A DNA stretch of 64,000 bases, taken from the NCBI RefSeq assembly GCF_021155765.1, contig NC_060112.1, positions 9,610,001 through 9,674,000 on the forward strand. The letters are read 5' to 3'. Source of the stretch: Diprion similis (taxonomy: Eukaryota; Arthropoda; Insecta; Hymenoptera; Diprionidae). This document shows, one piece after another, positions 46,201-64,000 of the stretch. The position numbers were made by a program, and so were the translations under genes. The number at the start of each line of letters is the position of its first letter. Position 1 is the stretch's first letter. The notes under the pieces are model-generated. The model had not been told where the DNA came from. It did no database searches and saw only the letters and a program-made list of their open reading frames with translations.

Positions 46201-48488
46201 ATTCATAACTCAATATTTCACACTTTTCTAATAAAAATCTCTGAGCCATTTCAAAGATGCACTGATTTACGTCTAATATGTTCTAGATATTAAAAGCAGA
46301 AACAGAAAGGTTATTGTCTTTAGCAGCATCTGCAGAAGCTGAACTGGCAGGTGGTGATCCAAGTGTACTTCCTGAGGAGGCAGCTGGAAAGTTGAGATCA
46401 GCTGCCGGCAAAGCTAGACTATTAGCGACTCAAAAGATGCAACAATTTGAGGGACTCTGCCAAAAGAATATTGTAAGTATTTGTTGTTAATACACTTGAG
46501 AATACATTCAACTAATCTCTCTGTTTACATCAATATTTTATTTTATCGTAGCTAATGAAAATAGTTTCCTACTATATTGGTAGGTTTCGTTACGTCTGTG
46601 AATAATTAAAGCGAATGTTAAAACTATCTACTTCATAAACATGAAAATTGTTTATTCCTCAGTGCAGGTTAGGATAAAAGTGAAACCTGCTTCGAACGTT
46701 AAGCTGATAGACTTTTGCATTTAGAGTTAGTATTCTGCTCGGGAAAACGTCTGTGTAGTACATCAGGTTTAGTCTTAATTATGTTTTCTAATTCATATAT
46801 CATCCTCATCATGATATTGTGAAGAGAAAAAAAATTTAATCTTGCTATTACAAACTGTAATTTAAAGTGTTGAGGTAAATTGAAAATGGCAATACACTTT
46901 GAAATTTGCAAATTTCCAGTGAAATTAAATACTAGTAAATCTGTATGGATTTTGTCGATATTTGTAGAATGTATATATTTTATATTTTTTGCATTCGTGG
47001 AAAGAATTTCATTCACTTTTTACGGTGTTTTTTTTTATAATCAGAATTCCTTGTAGATTTTATGTTACATTTTTATTTCTATAGAACCAAATACCTGGGG
47101 AAGAATTCCCAACCACCAACGAAGACTTAGCAGGCTTCTGGGATATGGTGATGCTACAAGTTATTCAAGTCAATGAACTTTTCGATCAAATTCGAAGACT
47201 GAAAGATTCGCAGTGGAAAGAAGTATGTATAATTTTTTTTTTTTATTATCTAGTGTTGATGATATGGTTAATTAGTGAGGATGACAATTTTAACGATAAT
47301 AAAACAATTGCAGTAACTATATGTAAAATAGAAAAAGTATTTTTGAAGCAAGATTTTCAGGAGTGCTATTACAATTATGCACGAAAGATGAATTATTTCA
47401 CTCAGCGAGCTGTGATTCCAAATTATAAGACATGTGTTCAAAATTTGAAAAGATTCACTTTAAATCAATTACTAATTAAATGTTATCTGAATCTCGAATC
47501 TTGAATCCAATGTTGGGGTTCATTGACAATAGGATTCATTCGTTCATCACAATTTTTGATAAAACATACAAGCAATATTGAAACTTGTTTCCACTTTGGC
47601 TGAAAAATTTTGCTCTCCCTGTTCTAAAATTACAAAGAAAGTATGAAAAAAGTAGAAACATTTCAGAATTAATTGATACTGTAATATTTTAAAACCAAAT
47701 TAATTTAAGTTGAGATATTGTGCCGTAATCTGGTATTACAGTGCAAAAAACTTTGTGTTACCCAGTCTTTGAAACAATTAGTATAATACCATTAGGGATC
47801 AACTAACTATAAAACTTTTTTCGGGGGACGTTGAAATATCAATTGAAAGTAATGTTTATATGAATTGTTGAAAACTAAAAGAAACAATGACAAATTTATC
47901 ACAAATTCTCGTCCAGCAGAATATAAACCGAATCTGAAAATTCCTAAGAATAGACGTAATAATTTTTTACGTATTGTTTGAATCCTCGTTCATTCTGTTA
48001 CTTTGAGTGATTTTTTTCTGCAAGTTAAAGTAGTTGCATGGCTTTTTGTCAAAAGTTAGAAAAAGATACTGGTAAGAAGCTTTGTCTAATAGAAAATAAA
48101 TGACTGGTTCAAAATGTATGTAGAACTGATATTTGAGTATTACTTCGGTAGTATCAACATGTTTGCGAATTGTAATTTACTTTTTATAGTTTTGTACTTT
48201 TTTTAAACTAAAATTTTACAAGAACAAAAATTTTTTTTCCAGGTTATTCCAGATTCTAAGGCTATTACATCCTTACCTCAAAATGGGAACACCACGAAAC
48301 GTCGTGTCAATGTCATGAAACAAGCAAAATCAACTGTAAATAGTGAAGCGAATCGCAAAGCTCGGGAAGCTCGCGAACAAGCCAGACGGCAAATGATAGA
48401 AGAAAGAAGACGAGCAATGCGTTCGCAGGCCCAGAATAAGGATCATAGTGATGCGGATTCTGTCAAAATTTTCGTTCCTGAAACGTAA
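40295..48488 (+). CDS. DLGAP: Disks large-associated protein (DLGAP/SAPAP, vulcan-like), 5' end uncertain
   Basis: Scaffold linking DLG/PSD-95 guanylate-kinase domains to Shank-type proteins at synapses and junctions. Exons 40295-40578, 43333-43678, 44709-45061, 45315-45693, 45853-46120, 46287-46472, 47085-47222 and 48243-48488 join in phase, about 730 residues. The first exon is open from its 3' splice site, so the true N-terminus is upstream or at the in-frame ATG in NMTSQESIGSC. The N-terminal half is disordered and Ser-rich, with YLGLACSISGYSGITRYDSK and two RDTSP motifs. The GKAP homology domain starts HYFIAILKAETERL and includes EEAAGKLRSAAGKARLL, QQFEGLCQKN and TNEDLAGFWDMVMLQV. A basic Arg/Lys/Gln helix and ADSVKIFVPET complete it. 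Vertebrate DLGAPs end in a similar stretch plus QTRL, absent here. The C-terminal ending and LAGFWD segment favour DLGAP1-4/vulcan over HURP/mars. Confidence 0.88.
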
Positions 48489-51400
48489 CGGTGAATTGGC
48501 GTGAGAATGAAACGCAAATGAAAAAAAAACAACGGCACTTTTTACACTGTTTTAGATTAAATGTATTCAAACGATTACTTACACAGCTTGCTAATGCTAC
48601 GACGAACATTACAATTCTAGTATGAACTGCATTCGCATCTAAAACTGTAACATTTTATAACAGTATTAAATTTCATTAAATGTTGAAGATTCGAAATGAT
48701 TTAAAGTTTTACGATCAGAGAGGATTTACTGACAAGAAGCGTATTTTAATATTTTTATTGGTTCCAAACGAGGACGTATTTTTAGAATATTTGTTATTAT
48801 ATTATGGGTTTAAAAAAAGATCGAATATACTCGAACAGCCGTTATAGTAAATGCATAGTTTTAGATCAGGTTGTGTCTGTTTAGTCAATCTTTTCGTGCT
48901 GCTTGTGTCGCGTCTTTTTCCAGATGGATGAGTGAGAATGAAACAATATGTGACTGCAAGCCGAGGTCGAATGAAAGAATGCTTCCTTAATGCGAGTTTT
49001 CTTTCGCGATTGAAATAAATTTACTATCAAAACATGAAGTAACTTTCGGATGTACAGTTCTCAGATGTGATAATTTGTTGCGATTAAAAAAATCTAACGT
49101 GAATCAATTTGTGACACCAGTGTTATAACATATTTTTTATTATCATCATTAGCAGAATGGTAAGTTCCATTTTTTCGCGTAAGCAGACTTTTTGTAAGAA
49201 AACTTAAATTAATTATTGATATTAAGTACTCTAGCTATTTAAATTTTTTCTATTGCGAGCCTAATGATTACTTAGTAACTTATAAATAGTAAATTGTAAA
49301 AACGAAAACACGACAAAAAAACACTAGGAATAAAACTTAATTGATTTTGTGTAACTTGTATAATATTCCTGTAATTAAATCATACTTTGGTGCAAAGTTA
49401 CATGTTATGTATATACTTATGTTATAAATAATTTAAATACACATGGCTTTGCTTGTAAATGGTAAATTTAAAAATCGTTTTGGTGTCGAAAGCGGCAGAT
49501 TCCAATTGTTATATTTAATAATTCTGTCGGCTCTTCGCGTTAATGTGGAATATTTGCAATATTTCATATTTATCGTGGTTATTATGTGCTAAACTTCTTG
49601 AAGCAGAGTACTTTCTTATATTCTTATTTTATACACTTTTATCTTCATATTAAGTAAGAAATCCGTCGGTTTAATATGTATTCTAACAAATTAAAAAAAA
49701 ACTGACCTCTAATAGTTAAGGATTGAATTCATGGGGAACCGAATAATTACATTAGCACATCCCTTAGTGCAGACATACATCTACCTATGATAAATGTTCG
49801 TTTCGATTGGGATTTCGAGGTGTCAAAGTTTCTCTTACAATTAATGTAAATCTTTGCGAACGGCGCGTAGTAAAACTTCAGACATCGGTGATTCAGTGAG
49901 TTCATGGCTCAGATTTTTTTCCTTTCAACGGAGCGAGAAGCTAATCGCTAGATCCAAATACGGACTCGAAATGATTATTTTTCGAAATTCCCAACGTACA
50001 TACTCACTGTGATTCTTAAACTTTGTTGAGTCATTCGAAATACTCTATATGCATGCGTTATAGCAAACAATATCTAGATTCGAAGAGTCAGTTCCTATAG
50101 CTATTCAGACATGTGTTAAAAAAATATTTGCATGCAAAAGTCCTTAGTATAAATGAAAAAATTACATATGATGAATGGATTTACAATTAAGGCCCTAGTC
50201 TAGTCATATAAATAGGTGCGTATAGAAACACAGACATAGATTTGTGATGCCGGGGATATGAAAATTTATATTTGAATTTACCATCGCATCGTTCACAGGT
50301 CTTTCCATGTTAGCGACTATTTCTAACATACTTAAACTTGAAGATCAATGCCACGAAGCTTATTTGAAATTGATTGAAAATCGATGATCGAGGTACTTGA
50401 CAAAAAAAAAAAAAGTTACCGAGCGATCTGTACTTATTAAAATATAATTTTGTGGTGAAACTATGCATTTTTATAATTAATGAAAGAAAAACTATAGTAC
50501 CAAGTATTCGTGCTCAATCATGTGAAGAATTTCGATTGACACTACGACCGTATGTTTGTGTTTGTATTAAAGAAAACTGCACTAGGTCCTTAAATCCCCA
50601 AAGATTAATGATGCGTTAAAAGTTTCAAGGCTCTAAAATTAAAATTAAACATCTTAATTCAGGGACTGTTAATTTTCCTAATTAAATAACGCGTTACCAT
50701 CACATATGTAATTAAAAGTCCGCCGCATCATGCCTCAATGCCTTAGTAAACAGAAAGATAATTGCATAAGTTAATAAATGGTTGAAATTCGACTAGAATC
50801 TCTTTTCTAAAAATACTGTGGTAATGAGGTCACGGCAGGTCAGAAACGTGACTCGAAATACACTTTTTACCCAAGAATACTAAGTTATTTATATTTAATA
50901 AAATTTTGTACATTTACATTGTTAATTATCAATTACGTTGATTAAAATATCGATACTTTGATATGCTTAAACACATTGTGAAGTTGGTACCGAATCATTA
51001 GTTCTCTTCTCTTTACGCATTCAAGTGATGAAATCACAACTTATTGGAAACTTCGTTAGCCACACGCTAACAACAAGCATTTTCAAAATAATTAGAGTTT
51101 CAACCATGTTAAAATTTGTTGTGATTTTTTAATTGTTTTCAAAGAGTTATTCATACTTTTACTTTACTTTACTTTTCGTGTTTTTGCAGGTTTGAATGGT
51201 TTACATTTTTATCAGATATTTTTATTGTGTTTGAAGCAGCTGATTAATCTATCGAAAATTCATTGAAATCAATACATTTTGCCATACGAGTTGTCGATTC
51301 TACTTTGCGATTACTTCCCTTTAGGCTTAAGTTTTTTTAAATTGTAAACGTTTGACATCATGACGTTTTATATAGTGCGCCATCAAAATTACACATACAT

Positions 51401-53538
51401 AAACGAATTTTTTTTTTCAACAATGAGTGCAAAGTTAATTTAAATTAGTGAATTACTAACAATTTTAATAATTCATAGATATTGCAACCTGCAATCGATA
51501 CTTTTTGATCCTTTATTAGTAATTTACATTTAGATATACCTGACTCTGTTCACAACATAACGCAATCAGCTGATGGAAATAGTATAAAAAAGTATGTTAT
51601 TCAAATTCGTGATAGTCTCTTCTGGATAGAAATTTGGTGACAGAAATTGCACACATTCTTTATTTGTTTGATATACTCACATCGTTTATTATTATTTATG
51701 TCACATTTTGTTGAAAAGCGTATTATTTTGTATTGTCAGGATGACTTTGGTTGAATAAAGTATTGACACGAGGGAGAAAATCATGAATAATGAAATCGGT
51801 ATAATAAATTTTCATATTGCTCTTGCTGCATGGATGAGTTTTAGTTCTTCGTTAATCCTTTAAGCTAAATAGATTGAGGTACAATTACATCGGGATGTCT
51901 CGCCATGCTCAACTATAATGTGGCATTGACATATTAAAGGAATTTCAGCGCGAATACTTCGTTGTCAAAGAATTAATTGGGAAATAAATTCCACACAAGA
52001 AAAACTGCTAAGAGTAAAATACTTCTGAAATAATGCTATTAGATTCAAGCAATGTAGCAAAATATTACTGTATGTGAAAAATATTAGAATATATTCATTT
52101 CGATTAAAATCATCCTTCTGTATATTTGGTTATATTCTAATCAGCCCTATTTTACAACTACCACAACGATGTTCAATGGAAATGAATAGTTTAATACCAA
52201 ATCGTAAACCGTAATTCAGTCTACAGTGAACTCAGAATTGAAAAATGTTATAATTAATCTAGTTTGTATATATTTAGGATAGTTTAAATATCAACCAAGG
52301 TCATCAAAATGAGAACGGAAAAAATTCATTTCTTTTTTGTAAAAATGGTTCTCACGATAATAATTAAATGCAAGCTTTCAGAAATACGTTGACCCAATTG
52401 TGAAGGTATTATTGAAAACAGCTACAGACCATTTTAACAAACGGTATAATGAAGGATAATTTGAGAATATGACGAACTGTACTATATTTTAATAAATGAA
52501 ATCACTGCTCTCTTACGCAGAGTCACATATTCTTCACGTCATTATTACGTATATTAATTAATTTCCCCTACAATCGGTACTTTGATGGGGGCCACGAGTA
52601 GAAATATTTTCAGTGGTATTGATTTCCCCAAACGCCAAAGCGAACGAGTTTCATTTACAGCCTGAAAATGTACAGCATTCGGTTTTGATCGTCAGTGTTG
52701 ACTGCCTAAATAGTAAATCGGAATCTAAAACGTTTATTGCTAAAATATTGATAATGATATAAAAATTTTCTAACTGTGTGAGAACACTTACTATTGAGCG
52801 GTAATACCACTCTAGCGGCCGCAAAAAAGGCCTAACTTCGACGATTTATTTTGGGAGTATGGAAGACAGAATAAGGATTTTTCAAGGGGTTTATTTAACA
52901 CATATCGAAGTCAAAACATTTCTTTTTATCATCATTTTAATGTAAAATGGCGGTGACAGAACCAATATCTGAAATCGTCTTTTATTAGAACTCTTTCACA
53001 GGGAGACGGATTTTTCGTAAAGTATAAAACCTGGATTAAAGGATGAAACCTTGGATCCGTTGCTCGTAGCGTATTCGAAGTACGCCAAACGATTCCTCTC
53101 GCAAAATTATGTCGGTACACTGCACCGAAGAATTGATTCCAGGAATATATGATATGTGTGCATCTGATCCAACAATAATAAAAAATAACTGGTCAGTGAA
53201 ATTTTGGTTTCAGAAAGCTCGTCGACGTGTTATTTGGATAATTGAAGAAGAAAAGGACCTTCCACTGCAACACGATCAAGTGGCAGCGAGTTTTTCAAGA
53301 AATTCACTTGCAAACAAGTTTCTTTGTTGACATAAATCTAAACTACGGACCTTAAATCAATCGTCGATTTACCGATAATGAACCCAGATCAACAATATGG
53401 GGAATAGGTCTCATTAAAAACTCGAGTCATTTGAATACGGGCGAGTCACTTTATCAGTTACATACATCAATTTGTATGTTTATTCAATAACAAAAGCGTC
53501 TATCAATGGCCACACACGTTTTCCCCTCTATGTTTTTA
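48489..53538. other. AT-rich region, DLGAP 3' UTR and spacer
   Basis: About 5 kb without a supported gene. The start should be the DLGAP 3' untranslated region (several AATAAA-type signals, e.g. near 49010 and 49330). A 73-codon ATG frame at 53109-53330, close to the satellite border, is noted as a finding but not called as a gene. Confidence 0.5.
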
Positions 53539-53850
53539 TCAGACTATGTTTGGCCAAATCTATGCGGCATGAGATTGCGTAATATCGGTATAATTTATCC
53601 CGAACTGTATATCCTGGTCGTTATTCCTCTGCCGATGATCCTACGCACTTTTTGCTGTGTTTGCCAAGTTCCTAAGGGTGCGATTATTCCAGGTAGGGTC
53701 ATACAAATCGATTCAAAGACGGAAAATTTTACGCTCGAAAAATTGCGAAAAAGTAAGGCTAACCCCTTTGGATTTGTGTCGAAAATTCCGACGATTTTGA
53801 GAAAGGCTGCAATCAATTCTTGGTGGCACTATTTCGACGTAATTTTGCGA
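53539..53850 (+). repeat. Degenerate edge monomer of the satellite
   Basis: Aligns with the 312-bp monomer but with many substitutions. From about 53600 the order is the same (GTTATTCCTCTGCCG for CATTTCTCTGCTG, then CCTACGC, GAGTTCCTG-like, GGTCATACAAATCGATTC). Similarity improves toward 53850 and is marginal before about 53600. This is where the array begins. Confidence 0.7.
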
Positions 53851-56514
53851 GAGGAATCGATTGAGCGCAGTCCCAATACGCTGCGAGCAACGGCTAAAAA
53901 GTTACAGGCGAAAAACTGAGAATTTTATTCGTCATTTCTCTGCTGTTCGTCCTACGCTCTTTTTCTTGTTTTTTCTGAGTTCCTGGGGGTCGAATTACTC
54001 TAAAGATGGTCATACAAATCGATTCCGGGACGAAAAATTTTCGTCTCCTAAAATGACCAAAAAAGTAAGGCTAACCCCTTTGGATTTTTGTCGAAAATTT
54101 CGACGATTTCGAGAAAGGCTGCAATCAATTCTTGGAGGCACTATTTCGACGTAATTTCGCGAGAGGAATCGATTGAGCGCAGTCCCAATACGCTGCGAGC
54201 AACAGCTAAAAAGTTACAGCCAAAAAACTGAGAATTTTATTCGTCATTTCTCTGCTGTTCGTCCTACGCTCTTTTTCTTGTTTTTTCTGAGTTCCTGGGG
54301 GTCGAATTACTCTAGAGATGGTGATAAAAATCGATGCCGGGACGAAAAATTTTCGTCCCCGAAAATGACCAAGAAAGTAAGGCTAACCCCTTTGGATTTT
54401 TGACGAAAATTTCGACGATTTTGAAAAAGGCTGCAATCAATTCTTGGAGGCACTATTTCGACGTAATTTTGCGAGAGGAATCGATTGAGCGCAGTCCCAA
54501 TACGCTGCGAGCAACGGCTGAAAAGTTACAGCCAAAAAACTGAGAATTTTATTCGTCATTTCTCTGCTGTTCGTCCTACGCTCTTTTTCTTGTTTTTTCT
54601 GAGTTCCTGGGGGTCGAATTACTCTAGAGATGGTCATAAAAATCGATTCCGGGACGAAAAATTTTCGTCCCCGAAAATGACCAAAAAAGTGAGGCTAACC
54701 CCTTTGGATTTTTGACGAAAATTTCGACGATTTTGAGAAAGGCTGCAATCAATTCTTGAAGGCACTATTTCGACGTAATTTTGCGAGAGGAATCGATTGA
54801 GCGCAGTCCCAATACGCTGCGAGCAACGGCTAAAAAGTTACAGCCAAAAAACTGAGAATTTTATTCGTCATTTCTCTGCTGTTCGTCCTACGCTCTTTTT
54901 CTTGTTTTTTCTGAGTTCCTGGGGGTCGAATTACTCTAGAGATGGTCATACAAATCGATTCCGGGACGAAAAATTTTCGTCTCCAAAAATGACCAAAAAA
55001 GTAAGGCTAACCCCTTTGGATTTTTGTCGAAAATTTCGACGATTTCGAGAAAGGCTGCAATCAATTCTTAGAGGCACTATTTCGACGTAATTTCGCGAGA
55101 GGAATCGATTGAGCGCAGTCCCAATACGCTGCGAGCAACGGCTAAAAAGTTACAGCCAAAAAACTGAGAATTTTATTCGTCATTTCTCTGCTGTTCGTCC
55201 TACGCTCTTTTTCTTGTTTTTTCTGAGTTCCTGGGGGTCGAATTACTCTAGAGATGGTCATAAAAATCGATTCCGGGACGAAAAATTTTCGTCCCCGAAA
55301 ATGACCAAAAAAGTGAGGCTAACCCCTTTGGATTTTTGACGAAAATTTCGACGATTTTGAGAAAGGCTGCAATCAATTCTTGAAGGCACTATTTCGACGT
55401 AATTTTGCGAGAGGAATCGATTGAGCGCAGTCCCAATACGCTGCGAGCAACGGCTAAAAAGTTACAGCCAAAAAACTGAGAATTTTATTCGTCATTTCTC
55501 TGCTGTTCGTCCTACGCTCTTTTTCTTGTTTTTTCTGAGTTCCTGGGGGTCAAATTACTCTAGAGATGGTCATACAAATCGATTACGAAACGAAAAATTT
55601 TCGTCTCCAAAAATGACCAAAAAAGTAAGGCTAACCCCTTTGGATTTTTGTCGAAAATTTCGACGATTTTGAAAAAGGCTGCAATCAATTCTTGGAGGCA
55701 CCATTTCGACGTAATTTCGCGAGAGGAATCGATTGAGCGCAGTCCCAATACGCTGCGAGCAACGGCTAAAAAGTTACAGCCAAAAAACTGAGAATTTTAT
55801 TCGTCATCTCTCTGCTGTTCGTCCTACGCTCTTTTTCTTGTTTTTTCTGAGTTCCTGGGGGTCGAATTACTCTAGAGATGGTCATACAAATCGATTCCGG
55901 GACGAAAAATTTTCGTCTCCAAAAATGACCAAAAAAGTAAGGCTAACCCCTTTGGATTTTTGTCGAAAATTTCGACGATTTCGAGAAAGGCTGCAATCAA
56001 TTCTTATAGGCACTATTTCGACGTAATTTCGCGAGAGGAATCGATTGAGCGCAGTCCCAATACGCTGCGAGCAACGGCTAAAAAGTTACAGCCAAAAAAC
56101 TGAGAATTTTATTCGTCATTTCTCTGCTGTTCGTCCTACGCTCTTTTTCTTGTTTTTTCTGAGTTCCTGGGGGTCGAATTACTCTAGAGATGGTCATACA
56201 AATCGATTACGAAACGAAAAAGTTTCGTCTCCAAAAATGACCAAAAAAGTAAGGCTAACCCCTTTGGATTTTTTTCGAAAATTTCGACGATTTTGAGAAA
56301 GGCTGCAATCAATTCTTGGAGGCACCATTTCGACGTAATTTCGCGAGAGGAATCGATTGAACGCGGTCCCAATACGCTGCGAGCAACGGCTAAAAAGTTA
56401 CAGCCAAACACTGAGAATTTTATTCGTCATTTCTCTGCTGTTCGTCCTACGCTCTTTTTCTTGTTTTTTCTGAGTTCCTGGGGGTCGAATTAGTCTAGAG
56501 ATGGTCATACAGAT

Positions 56515-58074
56515 CGATTCCGAAACGAAAAATTTTCGTCTCCAAAAATGACCAAAAAAGTAAGGCTAACCCCTTTGGATTTTTGTCGAAAATTTCGACG
56601 ATTTCGAGAAAGGCTGCAATCAATTCTTGGAGGCACTATTTCGACGTAATTTTGCGAGAGGAATCGATTGAGCGCAGTCCCAATACGCTGCGAGCAACGG
56701 CTAAAAAGTTACAGCCAAAAAACTGAGAATTTTATTCGTCATTTCTCTGCTGTTCGTCCTACGCTCTTTTTCTTGTTTTTTCTGAGTTCCTGGGGGTCAA
56801 ATTACTCTAGAGATGGTCATACAAATCGATTACGAAACGAAAAATTTTCGTCTCCAAAAATGACCAAAAAAGTAAGGCTAACCCCTTTGGATTTTTGTCG
56901 AGAATTTCGACGATTTTGAGAAAGGCTGCAATCAATTCTAAGAGGCACTATTTCGACGTAATTTCGCGAGAGGAATCGATTGAGCGCAGTCCCAATACGC
57001 TGCGAGCAACGTCTAGAAAGTTACAGCCAAAAAACTGAGAATTTTATTCGTCATTTCTCTGCTGTTCGTCCTACGCTCTTTTTCTTGTTTTTCCTGAGTT
57101 CCTGGGGGTCGAATTACTCTAGAGATGGTTATACAAATCGATTCCGAAACGAAAAATTTTCGTCTCCAAAAATGACCAAAAAAGTAAGGCTAACCCCTTT
57201 GGATTTTTGTCGAAAATTTCGAAGATTTTGAGAAAGGCTGCAATCAATTCTTGGAGGCACTATTTCGACGTAATTTTGCGAGAGCAATCGATTGAGCGCA
57301 GTCCCAATACGCTGCGAGCAACGTCTAGAAAGTTACAGCCAAAAAACTGAGAATTTTAATCGTCATTTCTCTGCTGTTCGTCCTACGCTCTTTTTCTTGT
57401 TTTTTCTGAGTTCCTGGGGGTCGAATTACTCGAGAGATGGTCATACAAATTGATTCCGAAACGAAAAATTTTCGTCTCCAAAAATGACCAAAAAAGTAAG
57501 GCTAACCCCTTTGGATTTTTGACGAAAATTTCGACGATTTTGAGAAAGGCTGCAATCAATTCTTGGAGGCACTATTTCGACGTAATTTTGCGAGAGGAAT
57601 CGATTGAGCGCAGTCCCAATACGCTGCGAGCAACGGCTAAAAAATTTCAGCCAAAAAACTGAGAATTTTATTTGTCATTTCTCTGCTGTTCGTCCTACGC
57701 TCTTTTTCTTGTTTTTTCTGAGTTCCTGGGGGTCGACTTACTCTAGAGATGGTCATACAAATCGATTACGAAACGAAAAAGTTTCGTCTCCAAAAATGAC
57801 CAAAAAAGTAAGGCTAACCCCTTTGGATTTTTGTCGAAAATTTCGACGATTTCGAGAAAGGCTGCAATCAATTCTTGGAGGCACTATTTCGACGTAATTT
57901 TGCGCGAGGAATCGATTGAGCGCAGTCCCAATACGCTGCGAGCAACGTCTAGAAAGTTACAGCCAAAAAACTGAGAATTTTAATCGTCATTTCTCTGCTG
58001 TTCGTCCTACGCTCTTTTTCTTGTTTTTTCTGAGTTCCTGGGGGTCGAATTACTCGAGAGATGGTCATACAAAT
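56515..58074 (+). repeat. Five-monomer satellite block, first copy
   Basis: A 1560-bp block of five monomers. It is followed immediately by a near-identical second copy; in the lines I compared the two differ at only a couple of positions (58731 and 59067 in the second copy). The variants inside the block (e.g. CGAGAATTTCGACG, AATTGATTCC, GAGCAATCG) mark each monomer and repeat in the same order. Confidence 0.8.
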
Positions 58075-59634
58075 CGATTCCGAAACGAAAAATTTTCGTC
58101 TCCAAAAATGACCAAAAAAGTAAGGCTAACCCCTTTGGATTTTTGTCGAAAATTTCGACGATTTCGAGAAAGGCTGCAATCAATTCTTGGAGGCACTATT
58201 TCGACGTAATTTTGCGAGAGGAATCGATTGAGCGCAGTCCCAATACGCTGCGAGCAACGGCTAAAAAGTTACAGCCAAAAAACTGAGAATTTTATTCGTC
58301 ATTTCTCTGCTGTTCGTCCTACGCTCTTTTTCTTGTTTTTTCTGAGTTCCTGGGGGTCAAATTACTCTAGAGATGGTCATACAAATCGATTACGAAACGA
58401 AAAATTTTCGTCTCCAAAAATGACCAAAAAAGTAAGGCTAACCCCTTTGGATTTTTGTCGAGAATTTCGACGATTTTGAGAAAGGCTGCAATCAATTCTA
58501 AGAGGCACTATTTCGACGTAATTTCGCGAGAGGAATCGATTGAGCGCAGTCCCAATACGCTGCGAGCAACGTCTAGAAAGTTACAGCCAAAAAACTGAGA
58601 ATTTTATTCGTCATTTCTCTGCTGTTCGTCCTACGCTCTTTTTCTTGTTTTTCCTGAGTTCCTGGGGGTCGAATTACTCTAGAGATGGTTATACAAATCG
58701 ATTCCGAAACGAAAAATTTTCGTCTCCAAACATGACCAAAAAAGTAAGGCTAACCCCTTTGGATTTTTGTCGAAAATTTCGAAGATTTTGAGAAAGGCTG
58801 CAATCAATTCTTGGAGGCACTATTTCGACGTAATTTTGCGAGAGCAATCGATTGAGCGCAGTCCCAATACGCTGCGAGCAACGTCTAGAAAGTTACAGCC
58901 AAAAAACTGAGAATTTTAATCGTCATTTCTCTGCTGTTCGTCCTACGCTCTTTTTCTTGTTTTTTCTGAGTTCCTGGGGGTCGAATTACTCGAGAGATGG
59001 TCATACAAATTGATTCCGAAACGAAAAATTTTCGTCTCCAAAAATGACCAAAAAAGTAAGGCTAACTCCTTTGGATTTTTGACGAAAATTTCGACGATTT
59101 TGAGAAAGGCTGCAATCAATTCTTGGAGGCACTATTTCGACGTAATTTTGCGAGAGGAATCGATTGAGCGCAGTCCCAATACGCTGCGAGCAACGGCTAA
59201 AAAATTTCAGCCAAAAAACTGAGAATTTTATTTGTCATTTCTCTGCTGTTCGTCCTACGCTCTTTTTCTTGTTTTTTCTGAGTTCCTGGGGGTCGACTTA
59301 CTCTAGAGATGGTCATACAAATCGATTACGAAACGAAAAAGTTTCGTCTCCAAAAATGACCAAAAAAGTAAGGCTAACCCCTTTGGATTTTTGTCGAAAA
59401 TTTCGACGATTTCGAGAAAGGCTGCAATCAATTCTTGGAGGCACTATTTCGACGTAATTTTGCGCGAGGAATCGATTGAGCGCAGTCCCAATACGCTGCG
59501 AGCAACGTCTAGAAAGTTACAGCCAAAAAACTGAGAATTTTAATCGTCATTTCTCTGCTGTTCGTCCTACGCTCTTTTTCTTGTTTTTTCTGAGTTCCTG
59601 GGGGTCGAATTACTCGAGAGATGGTCATACAAAT
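58075..59634 (+). repeat. Five-monomer satellite block, second copy
   Basis: Direct tandem copy of 56515-58074 at a 1560-bp offset, with the same order of diagnostic variants. The match continues to about 59700, where TTTGTCG becomes TTTGACG. Its last two monomers are repeated again at about 59785-60408 (624-bp offset). Confidence 0.8.
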
Positions 59635-62600
59635 CGATTCCGAAACGAAAAATTTTCGTCTCCAAAAATGACCAAAAAAGTAAGGCTAACCCCTTTGGAT
59701 TTTTGACGAAAATTTCGACGATTTTGAGAAAGGCTGCAATCAATTCTTGGAGGCACTATTTCGACGTAATTTTGCGAGAGGAATCGATTGAGCGCAGTCC
59801 CAATACGCTGCGAGCAACGGCTAAAAAATTTCAGCCAAAAAACTGAGAATTTTATTTGTCATTTCTCTGCTGTTCGTCCTACGCTCTTTTTCTTGTTTTT
59901 TCTGAGTTCCTGGGGGTCGACTTACTCTAGAGATGGTCATACAAATCGATTACGAAACGAAAAAGTTTCGTCTCCAAAAATGACCAAAAAAGTAAGGCTA
60001 ACCCCTTTGGATTTTTGTCGAAAATTTCGACGATTTCGAGAAAGGCTGCAATCAATTCTTGGAGGCACTATTTCGACGTAATTTTGCGCGAGGAATCGAT
60101 TGAGCGCAGTCCCAATACGCTGCGAGCAACGTCTAGAAAGTTACAGCCAAAAAACTGAGAATTTTAATCGTCATTTCTCTGCTGTTCGTCCTACGCTCTT
60201 TTTCTTGTTTTTTCTGAGTTCCTGGGGGTCGAATTACTCGAGAGATGGTCATACAAATCGATTCCGAAACGAAAAATTTTCGTCTCCAAAAATGACCAAA
60301 AAAGTAAGGCTAACCCCTTTGGATTTTTGACGAAAATTTCGACGATTTTGAGAAAGGCTGCAATCAATTCTTGGAGGCACTATTTCGACGTAATTTTGCG
60401 AGAGGAATCGATTGAGCGCAGTCCCAATACGCTGCGAGCAACGGCTAGAAAGTTACAGCCAAAAAACTGAGAATCTTATTCGTCATTTCTCTGCTGTTCG
60501 TCCTACGCTCTTTTTCTTGTTTTTTCTGAGTTCCTGGGGGTCGAATTACTCTAGAGATGGTCATAAAAATCGATTCCGGGACGAAAAATTTTCGTCCTCG
60601 AAAATGACCAAAAAAGTAAGGCTAACCCCTTTGGATTTTTGACGAAAATTTCGACGATTTTGAGAAAGGCTGCAATCAATTCTTGGAGGCACTATTTCGA
60701 CGTAATTTTGCGAGAGGAATCGATTGAGCGCAGTCCCAATACGCCGCGAGCAACGGCTAAAAAGTTACAGCCAAAAAACTGAGAATTTTATTCGTCATTT
60801 CTCTGCTGTTCGTCCTACGCTCTTTTTCTTGTTTTTTCTGAGTTCCTGGGGGTCGAATTACTCTAGAGATGGTCATACAAATCGATTACGAAACGAAAAA
60901 TTTTCGTCTCCAAAAATGACCAAAAAAGTAAGGCTAACCCCTTTGGATTTTTGTCGAAAATTTCGACGATTTCGAGAAAGGCTGCAATCAATTCTTAGAG
61001 GCACTATTTCGACGTAATTTCGCGAGAGGAATCGATTGAGCGCAGTCCCAATACGCTGCGAGCAACGGCTAAAAAGTTACAGCCAAAAAACTGAGAATTT
61101 TATTCGTCATTTCTCTGCTGTTCGTCCTACGCTCTTTTTCTTGTTTTTTCTGAGTTCCTGGGGGTCGAATTACTCTAGAGATGGTCATACAGATCGATTC
61201 CGAAACGAAAAATTTTCGTCTCCAAAAATGACCAAAAAAGTAAGGCTAACCCCTTTGGATTTTTGTCGAAAATTTCGACGATTAAGAGAAAGGCTGCAAT
61301 CAATTCTTAGAGGCACTATTTCGACGTAATTTCGCGAGAGGAATCGATTGAGCGCAGTCCCAATACGCTGCGAGCAACGGCTAAAAAGTTACAGCCAAAA
61401 AACTGAGAATTGTATTCGTCATTTCTCTGCTGTTCGTCCTACGCTCTTTTTCTTGTTTTTTCTGGGTTCCTGGGGGTCGAATTACTCTAGAGATGGTCAT
61501 ACAAATCGATTCCGGGACGAAAAATTTTCGTCCCCGAAAATGACCAAAAAAGTAAGGCTAACCCCTTTGGATTTTTGACGAAAATTTCGACGAATTTGAG
61601 AAAGGCTGCAATCAATTCTTGGAGGCACTATTTCGACGTAATTTTGCGAGAGGAATCGATTGAGCGCAGTCCCAATACGCTGCGAGCAACGGCTAAAAAG
61701 TTACAGCCAAAAAACTGAGAATTTTATTCGTCATTTCTCTGCTGTTCGTCCTACGCTCTTTTTCTTGTTTTTTCTGGGTTCCTGGGGGTCGAATTACTCT
61801 AGAGATGGTCATACAAATCGATTCCGGGACGAAAAATTTTCGTCCCCGAAAATGACCAAAAAAGTAAGGCTAACCCCTTTGGATTTTTGTCGAAAATTTC
61901 GACGATTTTGAGAAAGGCTGCAATCAATTCTTGAAGGCACCATTTCGACGTAATTTCGCGAGAGGAATCGATTGAGCGCAGTCCCAATACGCTGCGAGCA
62001 ACGGCTAAAAAGTTACAGCCAAAAAACTGAGAATTTTATTCGTCATTTCTCTGCTGTTCGTCCTACGCTCTTTTTCTTGTTTTTTCTGAGTTCCTGGGGG
62101 TCGAATTACTCTAGAGATGGTCATACAGATCGATTCCGAAACGAAAAATTTTCGTCTCCAAAAATGACCAAAAAAGTAAGGCTAACCCCTTTGGATTTTT
62201 GTCGAAAATTTCGACGATTTCGAGAAAGGCTGCAATCAATTCTTGGAGGCACTATTTCGACGTAATTTCGCGAGAGGAATCGATTGAGCGCAGTCCCAAT
62301 ACGCTGCGAGCAACGGCTAAAAAGTTACAGCCAAAAAACTGAGAATTTTATTCTTCATTTCTCTGCTGTTCGTCCTACGCTCTTTTTCTTGTTTTTTCTG
62401 AGTTCCTGGGGGTCGAATTACTCTAGAGATGGTCGTACAAATCGATTCCGAAACGAAAAATTTTCGTCTCCAAAAATGACCAAAAAAGTAAGGCTAACCC
62501 CTTTGGATTTTTGTCGAAAATTTCGACGATTTTGAGAAAGGCTGCAATCAATTCTTAGAGGCACTATTCCGACGTAATTTCGCGAGAGGAATCGATTGAG

Positions 62601-64000
62601 CGCAGTCCCAATACGCTGCGAGCAACGGCTAAAAAGTTACAGCCAAAAAACTGAGAATTTTATTCGTCATTTCTCTGCTGTTCGTCCTACGCTCTTTTTC
62701 TTGTTTTTTCTGAGTTCCTGGGGGTCGAATTACTCTAGAGATGGTCATAAAAATCGATTCCGGGACGAAAAATTTTCGTCCCCGAAAATGACCAAAAAAG
62801 TAAGGCTAACCCCTTTGGATATTTGACGGAAATTTCGACGATTTTGAGAAAGGCTGCAATCAATTCTTGGAGGCACTATTCCGACGTAATTTTGCGAGAG
62901 AAATCGATTGAGCGCAGTCCCAATACGCTGCGAGCAACGGCTAAAAAGTTACAGCCAAAAAAACTGAGAATTTTATTCGTCATTTCTCTGCTGTTCGTCC
63001 TACGCTCTTTTTCTTGTTTTTTCTGAGTTCCTGGGGGTCGAATTACTCTAGAGATGGTCATACAAATCGATTACGAAACGAAAAATTTTCGTCCCCAAAA
63101 ATGACCAAAAAAGTAAGGCTAACCCCTTTGGATTTTTGTCGAAAATTTCGACGATTTTGAGAAAGGCTGCAATCAATTCTTGGAGGCACCATTTCGACGT
63201 AATTTCGCGAGAGGAATCGATTGAGCGCAGTCCCAATACGCTGCGAGCAACGGCTAAAAAGTTACAGCCAAAAAACTGAGAATTTTATTCGTCATTTCTC
63301 TGCTGTTCGTCCTACGCTCTTTTTCTTGTTTTTTCTGAGTTCCTGGGGGTCGAATTACTCTAGAGATGGTCATACAGATCGATTCCGAAACGAAAAATTT
63401 TCGTCTCCAAAAATGACCAAAAAAGTAAGGCTAACCCCTTTGGATTTTTGTCGAAAATTTCGACGATTTTGAGAAAGGCTGCAATCAATTCTTGGAGGCA
63501 CCATTTCGACGTAATTTCGCGAGAGGAATCGATTGAGCGCAGTCCCAATACGCTGCGAGCAACGGCTAAAAAGTTACAGCCAAAAAACTGAGAATTTTAT
63601 TCGTCATTTCTCTGCTGTTCGTCCTACGCTCTTTTTCTTGTTTTTTCTGAGTTCCTGGGGGTCGAATTACTCTAGAGATGGTCATACAAATCGATTACGA
63701 AACGAAAAATTTTCGTCCCCAAAAATGACCAAAAAAGTAAGGCTAACCCCTTTGGATTTTTGTCGAAAATTTCGACGATTTTGAGAAAGGCTGCAATCAA
63801 TTCTTGGAGGCACCATTTCGACGTAATTTCGCGAGAGGAATCGATTGAGCGCAGTCCCAATACGCTGCGAGCAACGGCTAAAAAGTTACAGCCAAAAAAC
63901 TGAGAATTTTATTCGTCATTTCTCTGCTGTTCGTCCTACGCTCTTTTTCTTGTTTTTTCTGAGTTCCTGGGGGTCGAATTACTCTAGAGATGGTCATACA

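What the first reader, a model, noticed from the sequence alone, without database searches (positions are those of the whole stretch)
53539..64000. Large 312-bp satellite array beginning next to genes
The sequence shows about 33 head-to-tail monomers of 312 bp, very similar to each other, leaving the window still intact. No known satellite family is recognised by me. Such arrays usually mark centromeric or pericentromeric heterochromatin, so this window may be a euchromatin-satellite boundary within about 5 kb of the DLGAP gene.
Basis: partly seen in the sequence, partly recalled or inferred. Interest (0 to 1): 0.7.

Follow-up and report, generated by a model that had tools for sequence, protein, structure and literature searches.

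The report
One of many dispersed satellite arrays
The 312-base repeats are real, but they form one of many separate arrays of a common satellite DNA scattered among genes in what is probably an insect genome, so this is most likely not the edge of a centromere.

Summary
The array is real: about 33 monomers of 312 bp in the window, 96% matches. It does not lead into a large satellite block. Followed along the contig it runs about 34.3 kb (C8:9,663,618-9,697,925, plus one strongly diverged monomer) and stops. The next 46 kb hold none. An LHFPL-type exon lies about 3.6 kb beyond; a GKAP/DLGAP-type exon lies about 6 kb before. The family is abundant: 22,689 hits of a conserved 29-mer, on both strands, control 0, about 7.1 Mb or 2.6% of 269 Mb. 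From capped lists I tallied 53 sites on 12 of 14 large contigs (41 read). Monomers are 96.6% alike within this array, while 40 sampled arrays average about 85%, and edge monomers are diverged. Best reading: a satellite dispersed through gene-bearing DNA, seeded long ago and kept uniform array by array through local unequal exchange. This kind is known in insects (PMC12692304, section read). I found no description of this repeat, but the species is unknown. A distributed-centromere role is unlikely but not excluded; no chromatin data exist here.

The parts
53618..64000 (+). 312-bp satellite array, left part; on the contig it runs from C8:9,663,618 to 9,697,925 plus one strongly diverged monomer
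   Evidence: TRF; continuation read in L009-L011; segmentation
53618..53919 (+). diverged edge monomer (86.8% to the array consensus)
56727..59846 (+). monomers 10-13 recur as monomers 15-18, five monomers (1,560 bp) further on, with the same variant sets apart from one extra change in two of the four: a trace of local block duplication
   Evidence: variant lists
53041..53142 (-). degenerate monomer fragment in inverted orientation outside the array (78.6% over 103 columns)
47085..47504 (+). flanking landmark, not part of the array: ORF with a GKAP (DLGAP-type) match
   Evidence: Pfam PF03359, 31.2 bits, cut-off 27

Best explanation
This is one interstitial array of an abundant, non-coding 312-bp satellite family that occurs as many separate arrays (about 5.5 to 44 kb where extents were seen) on most large contigs of a 269-Mb genome, probably an insect with about 14 chromosomes. 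Shown: abundance, dispersal on both strands, array-specific sequence types, uniform interior with diverged edges, no Pfam match in the ORFs tested, no Rfam match, genes near both ends of this array. Inferred: each site was seeded long ago by a small copy (extrachromosomal circle, ectopic recombination or a lost mobile carrier), then grown and kept uniform by local unequal crossing-over, conversion or slippage, which does not reach the edges; some transfer between chromosomes went on. In the cell the arrays most likely form small islands of condensed chromatin with no dedicated function.
For: Array ends and non-satellite DNA follows; genes near both ends and near a second array. 11,594 forward and 11,095 reverse hits of a 29-mer, reversed-pattern control 0. 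53 tallied sites on 12 of 14 large contigs. Within-array identity 0.966 (108 monomers) and 0.963 (31 monomers of L019) against 0.852-0.862 between 40 arrays. Diverged edge monomers and block duplications inside. A rare variant falls almost wholly in two arrays: of 100 listed hits out of 110, 73 at C3:13.645-13.678 Mb and 19 at C6:22.17-22.18 Mb.
Against: Chromatin state, FISH position and transcription are untested. Sites look uneven (10 of 12 C3 sites lie between 11.1 and 15.9 Mb; three C8 sites between 9.44 and 9.91 Mb), so a regional concentration is possible; the lists are capped samples. Same-contig arrays are only slightly more alike than others (0.862 against 0.852; 41 of 2,000 permutations reach it), and some arrays on different contigs are up to 0.958 alike, so homogenisation is not purely local. 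No carrier or seeding event was identified.
Confidence: 0.84

Rival explanations
1. One reading: the array marks the border of centromeric or pericentromeric heterochromatin of this chromosome.
For: High copy number; three sites on C8 between 9.44 and 9.91 Mb, one of them a single pattern hit, could be the fringe of a pericentromere.
Against: The array is closed on both sides with genes near both ends. Points read at 9.764-9.864, 10.004, 10.204, 10.604 and 11.604 Mb hold no 312-bp satellite (7 of 8 ten-kb stretches; the eighth, 9.904 Mb, is all satellite). Other C8 sites lie at 13.2, 15.2, 25.6 and 26.5 Mb.
Confidence: 0.06
2. The dispersed arrays are distributed centromere units, as the Tyba arrays of the holocentric plant Rhynchospora are.
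For: Array sizes are of the same order: Tyba mean 18.2 kb with mean spacing 374 kb (PMC10954556, passages); here about 5.5-44 kb and, by my estimate, roughly one per Mb. A CENP-C-like gene is present, so a CenH3-type kinetochore is plausible.
Against: In insects holocentricity goes with loss of CenH3, and the CenpC motif was found in no holocentric insect (PMC4359364, passages), whereas a sequence fitting that motif is present here. Tallied sites look uneven; regular spacing was not tested with a full map.
Confidence: 0.04
3. The arrays are carried by a mobile element that holds tandem repeats (Helitron-like or other).
For: Dispersal on both strands and pairs of arrays on different contigs up to 0.958 alike call for some mobility; an inverted monomer fragment lies outside the left edge.
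Against: Apart from satellite pieces the 1,301-bp right flank matched only itself (40 of 43 candidates scored); the 821-bp left flank matched satellite pieces and a separate dispersed repeat that, in 11 of 11 copies checked, has no 312-bp satellite within its fetched flanks. Left and right flanks share nothing but satellite. The junctions of other arrays were hardly examined.
Confidence: 0.05

Closest known systems
Euchromatin-dominant insect satellite DNAs (Rhodnius prolixus, Rhynchophorus ferrugineus, Tribolium castaneum arm repeats; PMC12692304, section 7 read)
   Same: Abundant tandem repeats with satellite-like monomers, dispersed in chromosome arms rather than in one heterochromatic block; the review gives more than 3% of the genome for three Rhodnius satellites.
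   Different: No sequence comparison was possible. Arrays of tens of kb are seen here; for Tribolium arm repeats the review speaks of relatively short arrays.
Tyba repeat of Rhynchospora breviuscula (PMC10954556, passages)
   Same: Hundreds of arrays of about 20 kb dispersed along chromosomes.
   Different: Tyba arrays carry CENH3 in a holocentric plant and have mean spacing 374 kb; here CENH3 is untested, estimated density is lower and the tallied sites look uneven.
CenSol centromeric satellite of fire ants (PMC5024525, passages)
   Same: High-copy insect satellite in tandem.
   Different: CenSol is 109 bp and by FISH lies at primary constrictions; the 312-bp family occurs as several separate arrays per contig. 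The paper's second satellite, Solmin, patchy and off the centromeres, is nearer in behaviour.
Helitron-linked satellite repeats of oysters (PMC12692304, section 7; PMC7492417 seen in a search listing only)
   Same: Satellite repeats dispersed through the genome.
   Different: There as short arrays inside mobile elements and as standalone arrays; here long arrays, and no carrier found at this locus.

Membership tests
satellite DNA | long head-to-tail arrays of a non-coding unit at high genomic copy number | tested here: met
   TRF; 22,689 hits of a 29-mer; no Pfam match in 3 array ORFs at E up to 0.1, no Rfam match at gathering threshold in window 51,000-58,000; longest open frame in the tandem consensus 89 codons
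euchromatin-dispersed satellite | several separate arrays along chromosome arms | tested here: met
   53 tallied sites on 12 of 14 large contigs, up to 12 on one contig
euchromatin-dispersed satellite | arrays lie among genes | tested here: met
   for the 2 arrays whose flanks were read: this one and C8:26.48 Mb, right side only tested; other arrays' flanks were not read
euchromatin-dispersed satellite | euchromatic state by cytology or chromatin marks | not testable with these tools
   no FISH or chromatin data
centromeric/pericentromeric satellite | one main block per chromosome | tested here: not met
   separate arrays at several places per contig; a special subset at the centromere is not excluded
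centromeric/pericentromeric satellite | CENP-A enrichment or position at the primary constriction | not testable with these tools
   no ChIP or FISH data
mobile-element-borne tandem repeats | shared non-satellite termini around different arrays | tested here: not met
   for this locus only: flank searches and flank comparison with the C8:26.48 Mb array, which shows no shared non-repetitive flank
repeat-based holocentromere (Tyba type) | CENH3 on each array and regular spacing | not testable with these tools
repeat-based holocentromere (Tyba type) | holocentric chromosomes | tested here: inconclusive
   indirect only: a sequence fitting the CenpC motif is present, which PMC4359364 found in no holocentric insect (passages)

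The most novel reading that the evidence does not exclude
The dispersed 312-bp arrays are centromere-competent units, giving an insect that keeps CENP-C a distributed or multi-site centromere built on a repeat, an arrangement known from Rhynchospora but not described for insects in the passages I read.
Probability: 0.04. Interest if true: 0.9.

Novelty: new member of a known kind. Interest (0 to 1): 0.3.

Why it matters
It corrects a natural inference: a large uniform satellite array at the edge of a window need not be a centromere edge. By the 29-mer count about 2.6% of this assembly is this one family, in arrays that differ from one another and sit, in the two cases read, next to genes. That makes it a good natural series for asking how satellites seed, homogenise and decay at their edges, and whether they affect neighbouring genes.

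Tried and rejected
Rejected: a centromere boundary (array closed; several arrays per contig). A coding or RNA-gene tandem array. A mobile carrier with shared flanks at this locus. A CENP-B-box-like sequence in the consensus, pattern recalled, up to 1 mismatch: none. A relation to the 279-bp satellite: best E 0.48.

Weak or adverse results: higher-order structure is slight (lag 16 identity 0.978, other lags up to 30 between 0.965 and 0.973). Same-contig arrays are marginally more alike (0.862 against 0.852; 41 of 2,000 permutations); by distance 0.876 (under 0.3 Mb, 5 pairs), 0.868, 0.871, 0.852 (over 4 Mb). Of the 40 short loci fetched, C6:2.363 Mb held only a 105-bp piece and was dropped from the 53 sites; 38 of the 40 gave a near-full monomer for the comparison. 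C3:14.83 and C3:14.85 Mb were counted as two sites although they lie only about 18 kb apart and the gap was not read, so the tally could be 52. The plain DNA search skipped common words and did not list the window's own array, so it was not used for counting.

Species: 14 large contigs holding 98.3% of the assembly and TTAGG ends made me think of a diprionid sawfly of the genus Diprion (haploid number 14 recalled, from no call). No call confirmed it, and a cupin piece in the CENP-C-like gene speaks against it or for a basal exception.

Paper searches that showed no description of this repeat. They cover one open-licence library and were made without a species name, so they do not show that it is unpublished.

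Full report
Observation. TRF reports 33.3 copies of a 312-bp unit at 53,618-64,000 with 96% matches. Identity at a shift of 312 is 0.919, against 0.257 after shuffling and 0.278 elsewhere in the window.

The whole array. The window is G000:C8:9,610,001-9,674,000 of a 269-Mb assembly in 60 contigs. I read onward. The satellite fills L009, L010 and the first 3,968 bases of L011 and then stops; the rest of L011 and L012-L015 (to 9,744,000) show none (blastn at E 1e-5). Segmentation of window and L009-L011 gives 111 hits to the consensus: one inverted fragment at 9,663,041-9,663,142 and the array from 9,663,618 to 9,697,925; 108 are full-length, mean pairwise identity 0.966, 75 distinct sequences among the 108. 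The first monomer is 86.8% and the last 89.7% like the consensus; the printed neighbours are 96-99%. The next 312 bases on the right are still recognisable (score 182; the best of 200 shuffles reaches 164.5), the 312 after that are not (143; best shuffle 160), nor are the 312 before the left edge (123; best shuffle 163). Inside, monomers 10-13 recur as 15-18. A second array whose two ends were read, C8:26,477,610-26,483,144, also has diverged end monomers.

Neighbourhood. A GKAP (DLGAP-type) match lies in the ORF 47,085-47,504, about 6 kb left of the array; LHFPL-type matches begin at L011:7,510, about 3.6 kb right of it, one piece above and one below the Pfam cut-off. Other window ORFs match 2OG-oxygenase, WD40, G-patch, RFC-type lid and SelR families. 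The array at C8:26.48 Mb ends about 1 kb from ORFs with helicase C-terminal matches.

Genome-wide distribution. A conserved 29-mer with up to 2 mismatches has 11,594 forward and 11,095 reverse hits; the reversed-pattern control has 0. At 312 bp each that is 7.08 Mb, 2.6% of the assembly; monomers diverged in that stretch are missed. From the places listed, plus L019 and L027, I tallied 53 sites on 12 of the 14 large contigs. I read 41 of the 53: the window, L019, and 39 of the 40 short loci; each of the 39 shows two or more neighbouring monomer matches; the fortieth, C6:2.363 Mb, was a fragment and is not among the 53. The other 12 rest on pattern hits, three of them (C3:15.92, C8:9.44, C8:13.20 Mb) on a single hit. 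C3:14.83 and 14.85 Mb may be one site. Lists are capped (100 places for patterns, about 150 for DNA), so this is a sample. C5 and C11 gave no listed hit and were not searched by themselves. Extents seen run from 5.5 kb (C8:26.48 Mb) to about 44 kb (C2:9.60-9.64 Mb, span of listed hits, not read through). If arrays average 25 kb, which is my guess, about 280 exist, roughly one per Mb. Tallied sites look uneven: 10 of the 12 on C3 lie between 11.1 and 15.9 Mb.

How arrays relate. Between 40 arrays, one monomer each, identity runs from 0.766 to 0.958; means are 0.862 (88 same-contig pairs) and 0.852 (692 others), and 41 of 2,000 label permutations reach that difference. Within arrays it is 0.966 and 0.963. 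The window array and its neighbour at 9.90 Mb are 92-94% alike. Some arrays on different contigs are as close or closer: C12:6.12 and C1:4.95 Mb 0.958, and several pairs among these, C3:12.25, C4:15.16 and C6:3.54 Mb 0.94-0.95. Arrays with a 304-bp period (C7:7.62, C9:1.06, C9:4.94 Mb) and a 342-bp period (C3:11.28, C4:11.16 Mb) are variants. A rare one-base variant has 110 hits; of the 100 listed, 73 are at C3:13.645-13.678 Mb and 19 at C6:22.17-22.18 Mb.

Mechanism. Uniform interiors, diverged edges, block duplications and array-private variants are what local unequal exchange, conversion or slippage produces (general knowledge, recalled). The seeding of sites is inferred; no carrier was found. 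Apart from itself the 1,301-bp right flank matched only satellite pieces (40 of 43 candidates scored). The left flank matched satellite pieces and, at 52,781-53,040, a separate dispersed repeat: 21 listed places, 11 of 11 fetched copies. The DNA search skips very common words, so a very common carrier could be missed. The inverted fragment at 53,041-53,142 shows an older rearrangement at this edge.

Centromere question. Of 17 ends read on the 14 large contigs (14 starts, 3 ends), 6 are TTAGG telomere repeat, 4 a different 279-bp satellite, 1 is N and 6 are neither. The 279-bp satellite has 31,012 hits of a 31-mer, about 8.7 Mb, control 0, and also occurs inside contigs (C1:14.24, C1:15.00, C2:3.53 Mb among the first 100 places). 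So neither family shows a simple one-block-per-chromosome pattern in what I saw. A CENP-C-like gene is present at C2:10.8 Mb: 47 of 85 positions of the CENP-C cupin model (33.1 bits, 35.1, cut-off 29; 4 of 14 control genomes gave matches, none over the cut-off) and, about 0.7 kb upstream in an open frame, a sequence fitting the CenpC motif as I recall it. PMC4359364 (passages) reports the motif in most monocentric insects, in no holocentric one, and says that the hymenopteran CenpC proteins then found lacked the cupin domain. The first point favours monocentric chromosomes here. The second speaks against my recalled sawfly guess or marks a basal exception.

Literature. PMC12692304 (passages, section 7) describes satellites that are abundant and mainly euchromatic in several insects, so the kind is known. 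Rhynchospora Tyba arrays (PMC10954556, passages) are most similar in layout and the basis of the bold reading. CenSol of fire ants (PMC5024525, passages) is the nearest centromeric counter-example.

Verdict. A real, abundant, dispersed satellite with array-by-array homogenisation; a new member of a known kind; on present evidence not a centromere edge.

Noticed in passing
L024 (C8 start), L048 (C8 end), L026 (C6 start), L052 (C12 start); interior C1:14.24, C1:15.00, C2:3.53 Mb: A second, unrelated satellite of 279 bp: 31,012 hits of a 31-mer (about 8.7 Mb, 3.2%), at contig ends and inside contigs.
   Followed up: partly
L101 (C2:10.815 Mb): CENP-C-like gene with a sequence fitting the CenpC motif (motif recalled) and part of the cupin domain; PMC4359364 (passages) says hymenopteran CenpC lacked the cupin domain.
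   Followed up: partly
window 52781-53040; L030-L040: Fragment of a separate dispersed repeat, 71-83% alike at 21 listed places; other copies align to each other over up to about 700 bp.
   Followed up: partly
window 1-53000 against 53615-64000: CpG observed/expected is 0.88 in the gene side of the window and 1.52 in the array; eleven 10-kb non-satellite stretches to the right range from 1.03 to 1.46.
   Followed up: no
C7:7.615, C9:1.063, C9:4.939 Mb; C3:11.277, C4:11.156 Mb: Length variants of the family: 304-bp period in the first three and 342-bp period in the last two.
   Followed up: no
C3:14.828-14.830 and 14.848-14.850 Mb: Listed monomer hits repeat with a constant offset of 20,270 bases, as if a 20-kb stretch were duplicated.
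   Followed up: no
L025 (C2 start): 5,000 bases of TTAGG telomere repeat and 2,500 N in the same 10-kb stretch, the look of a scaffolding join.
   Followed up: no
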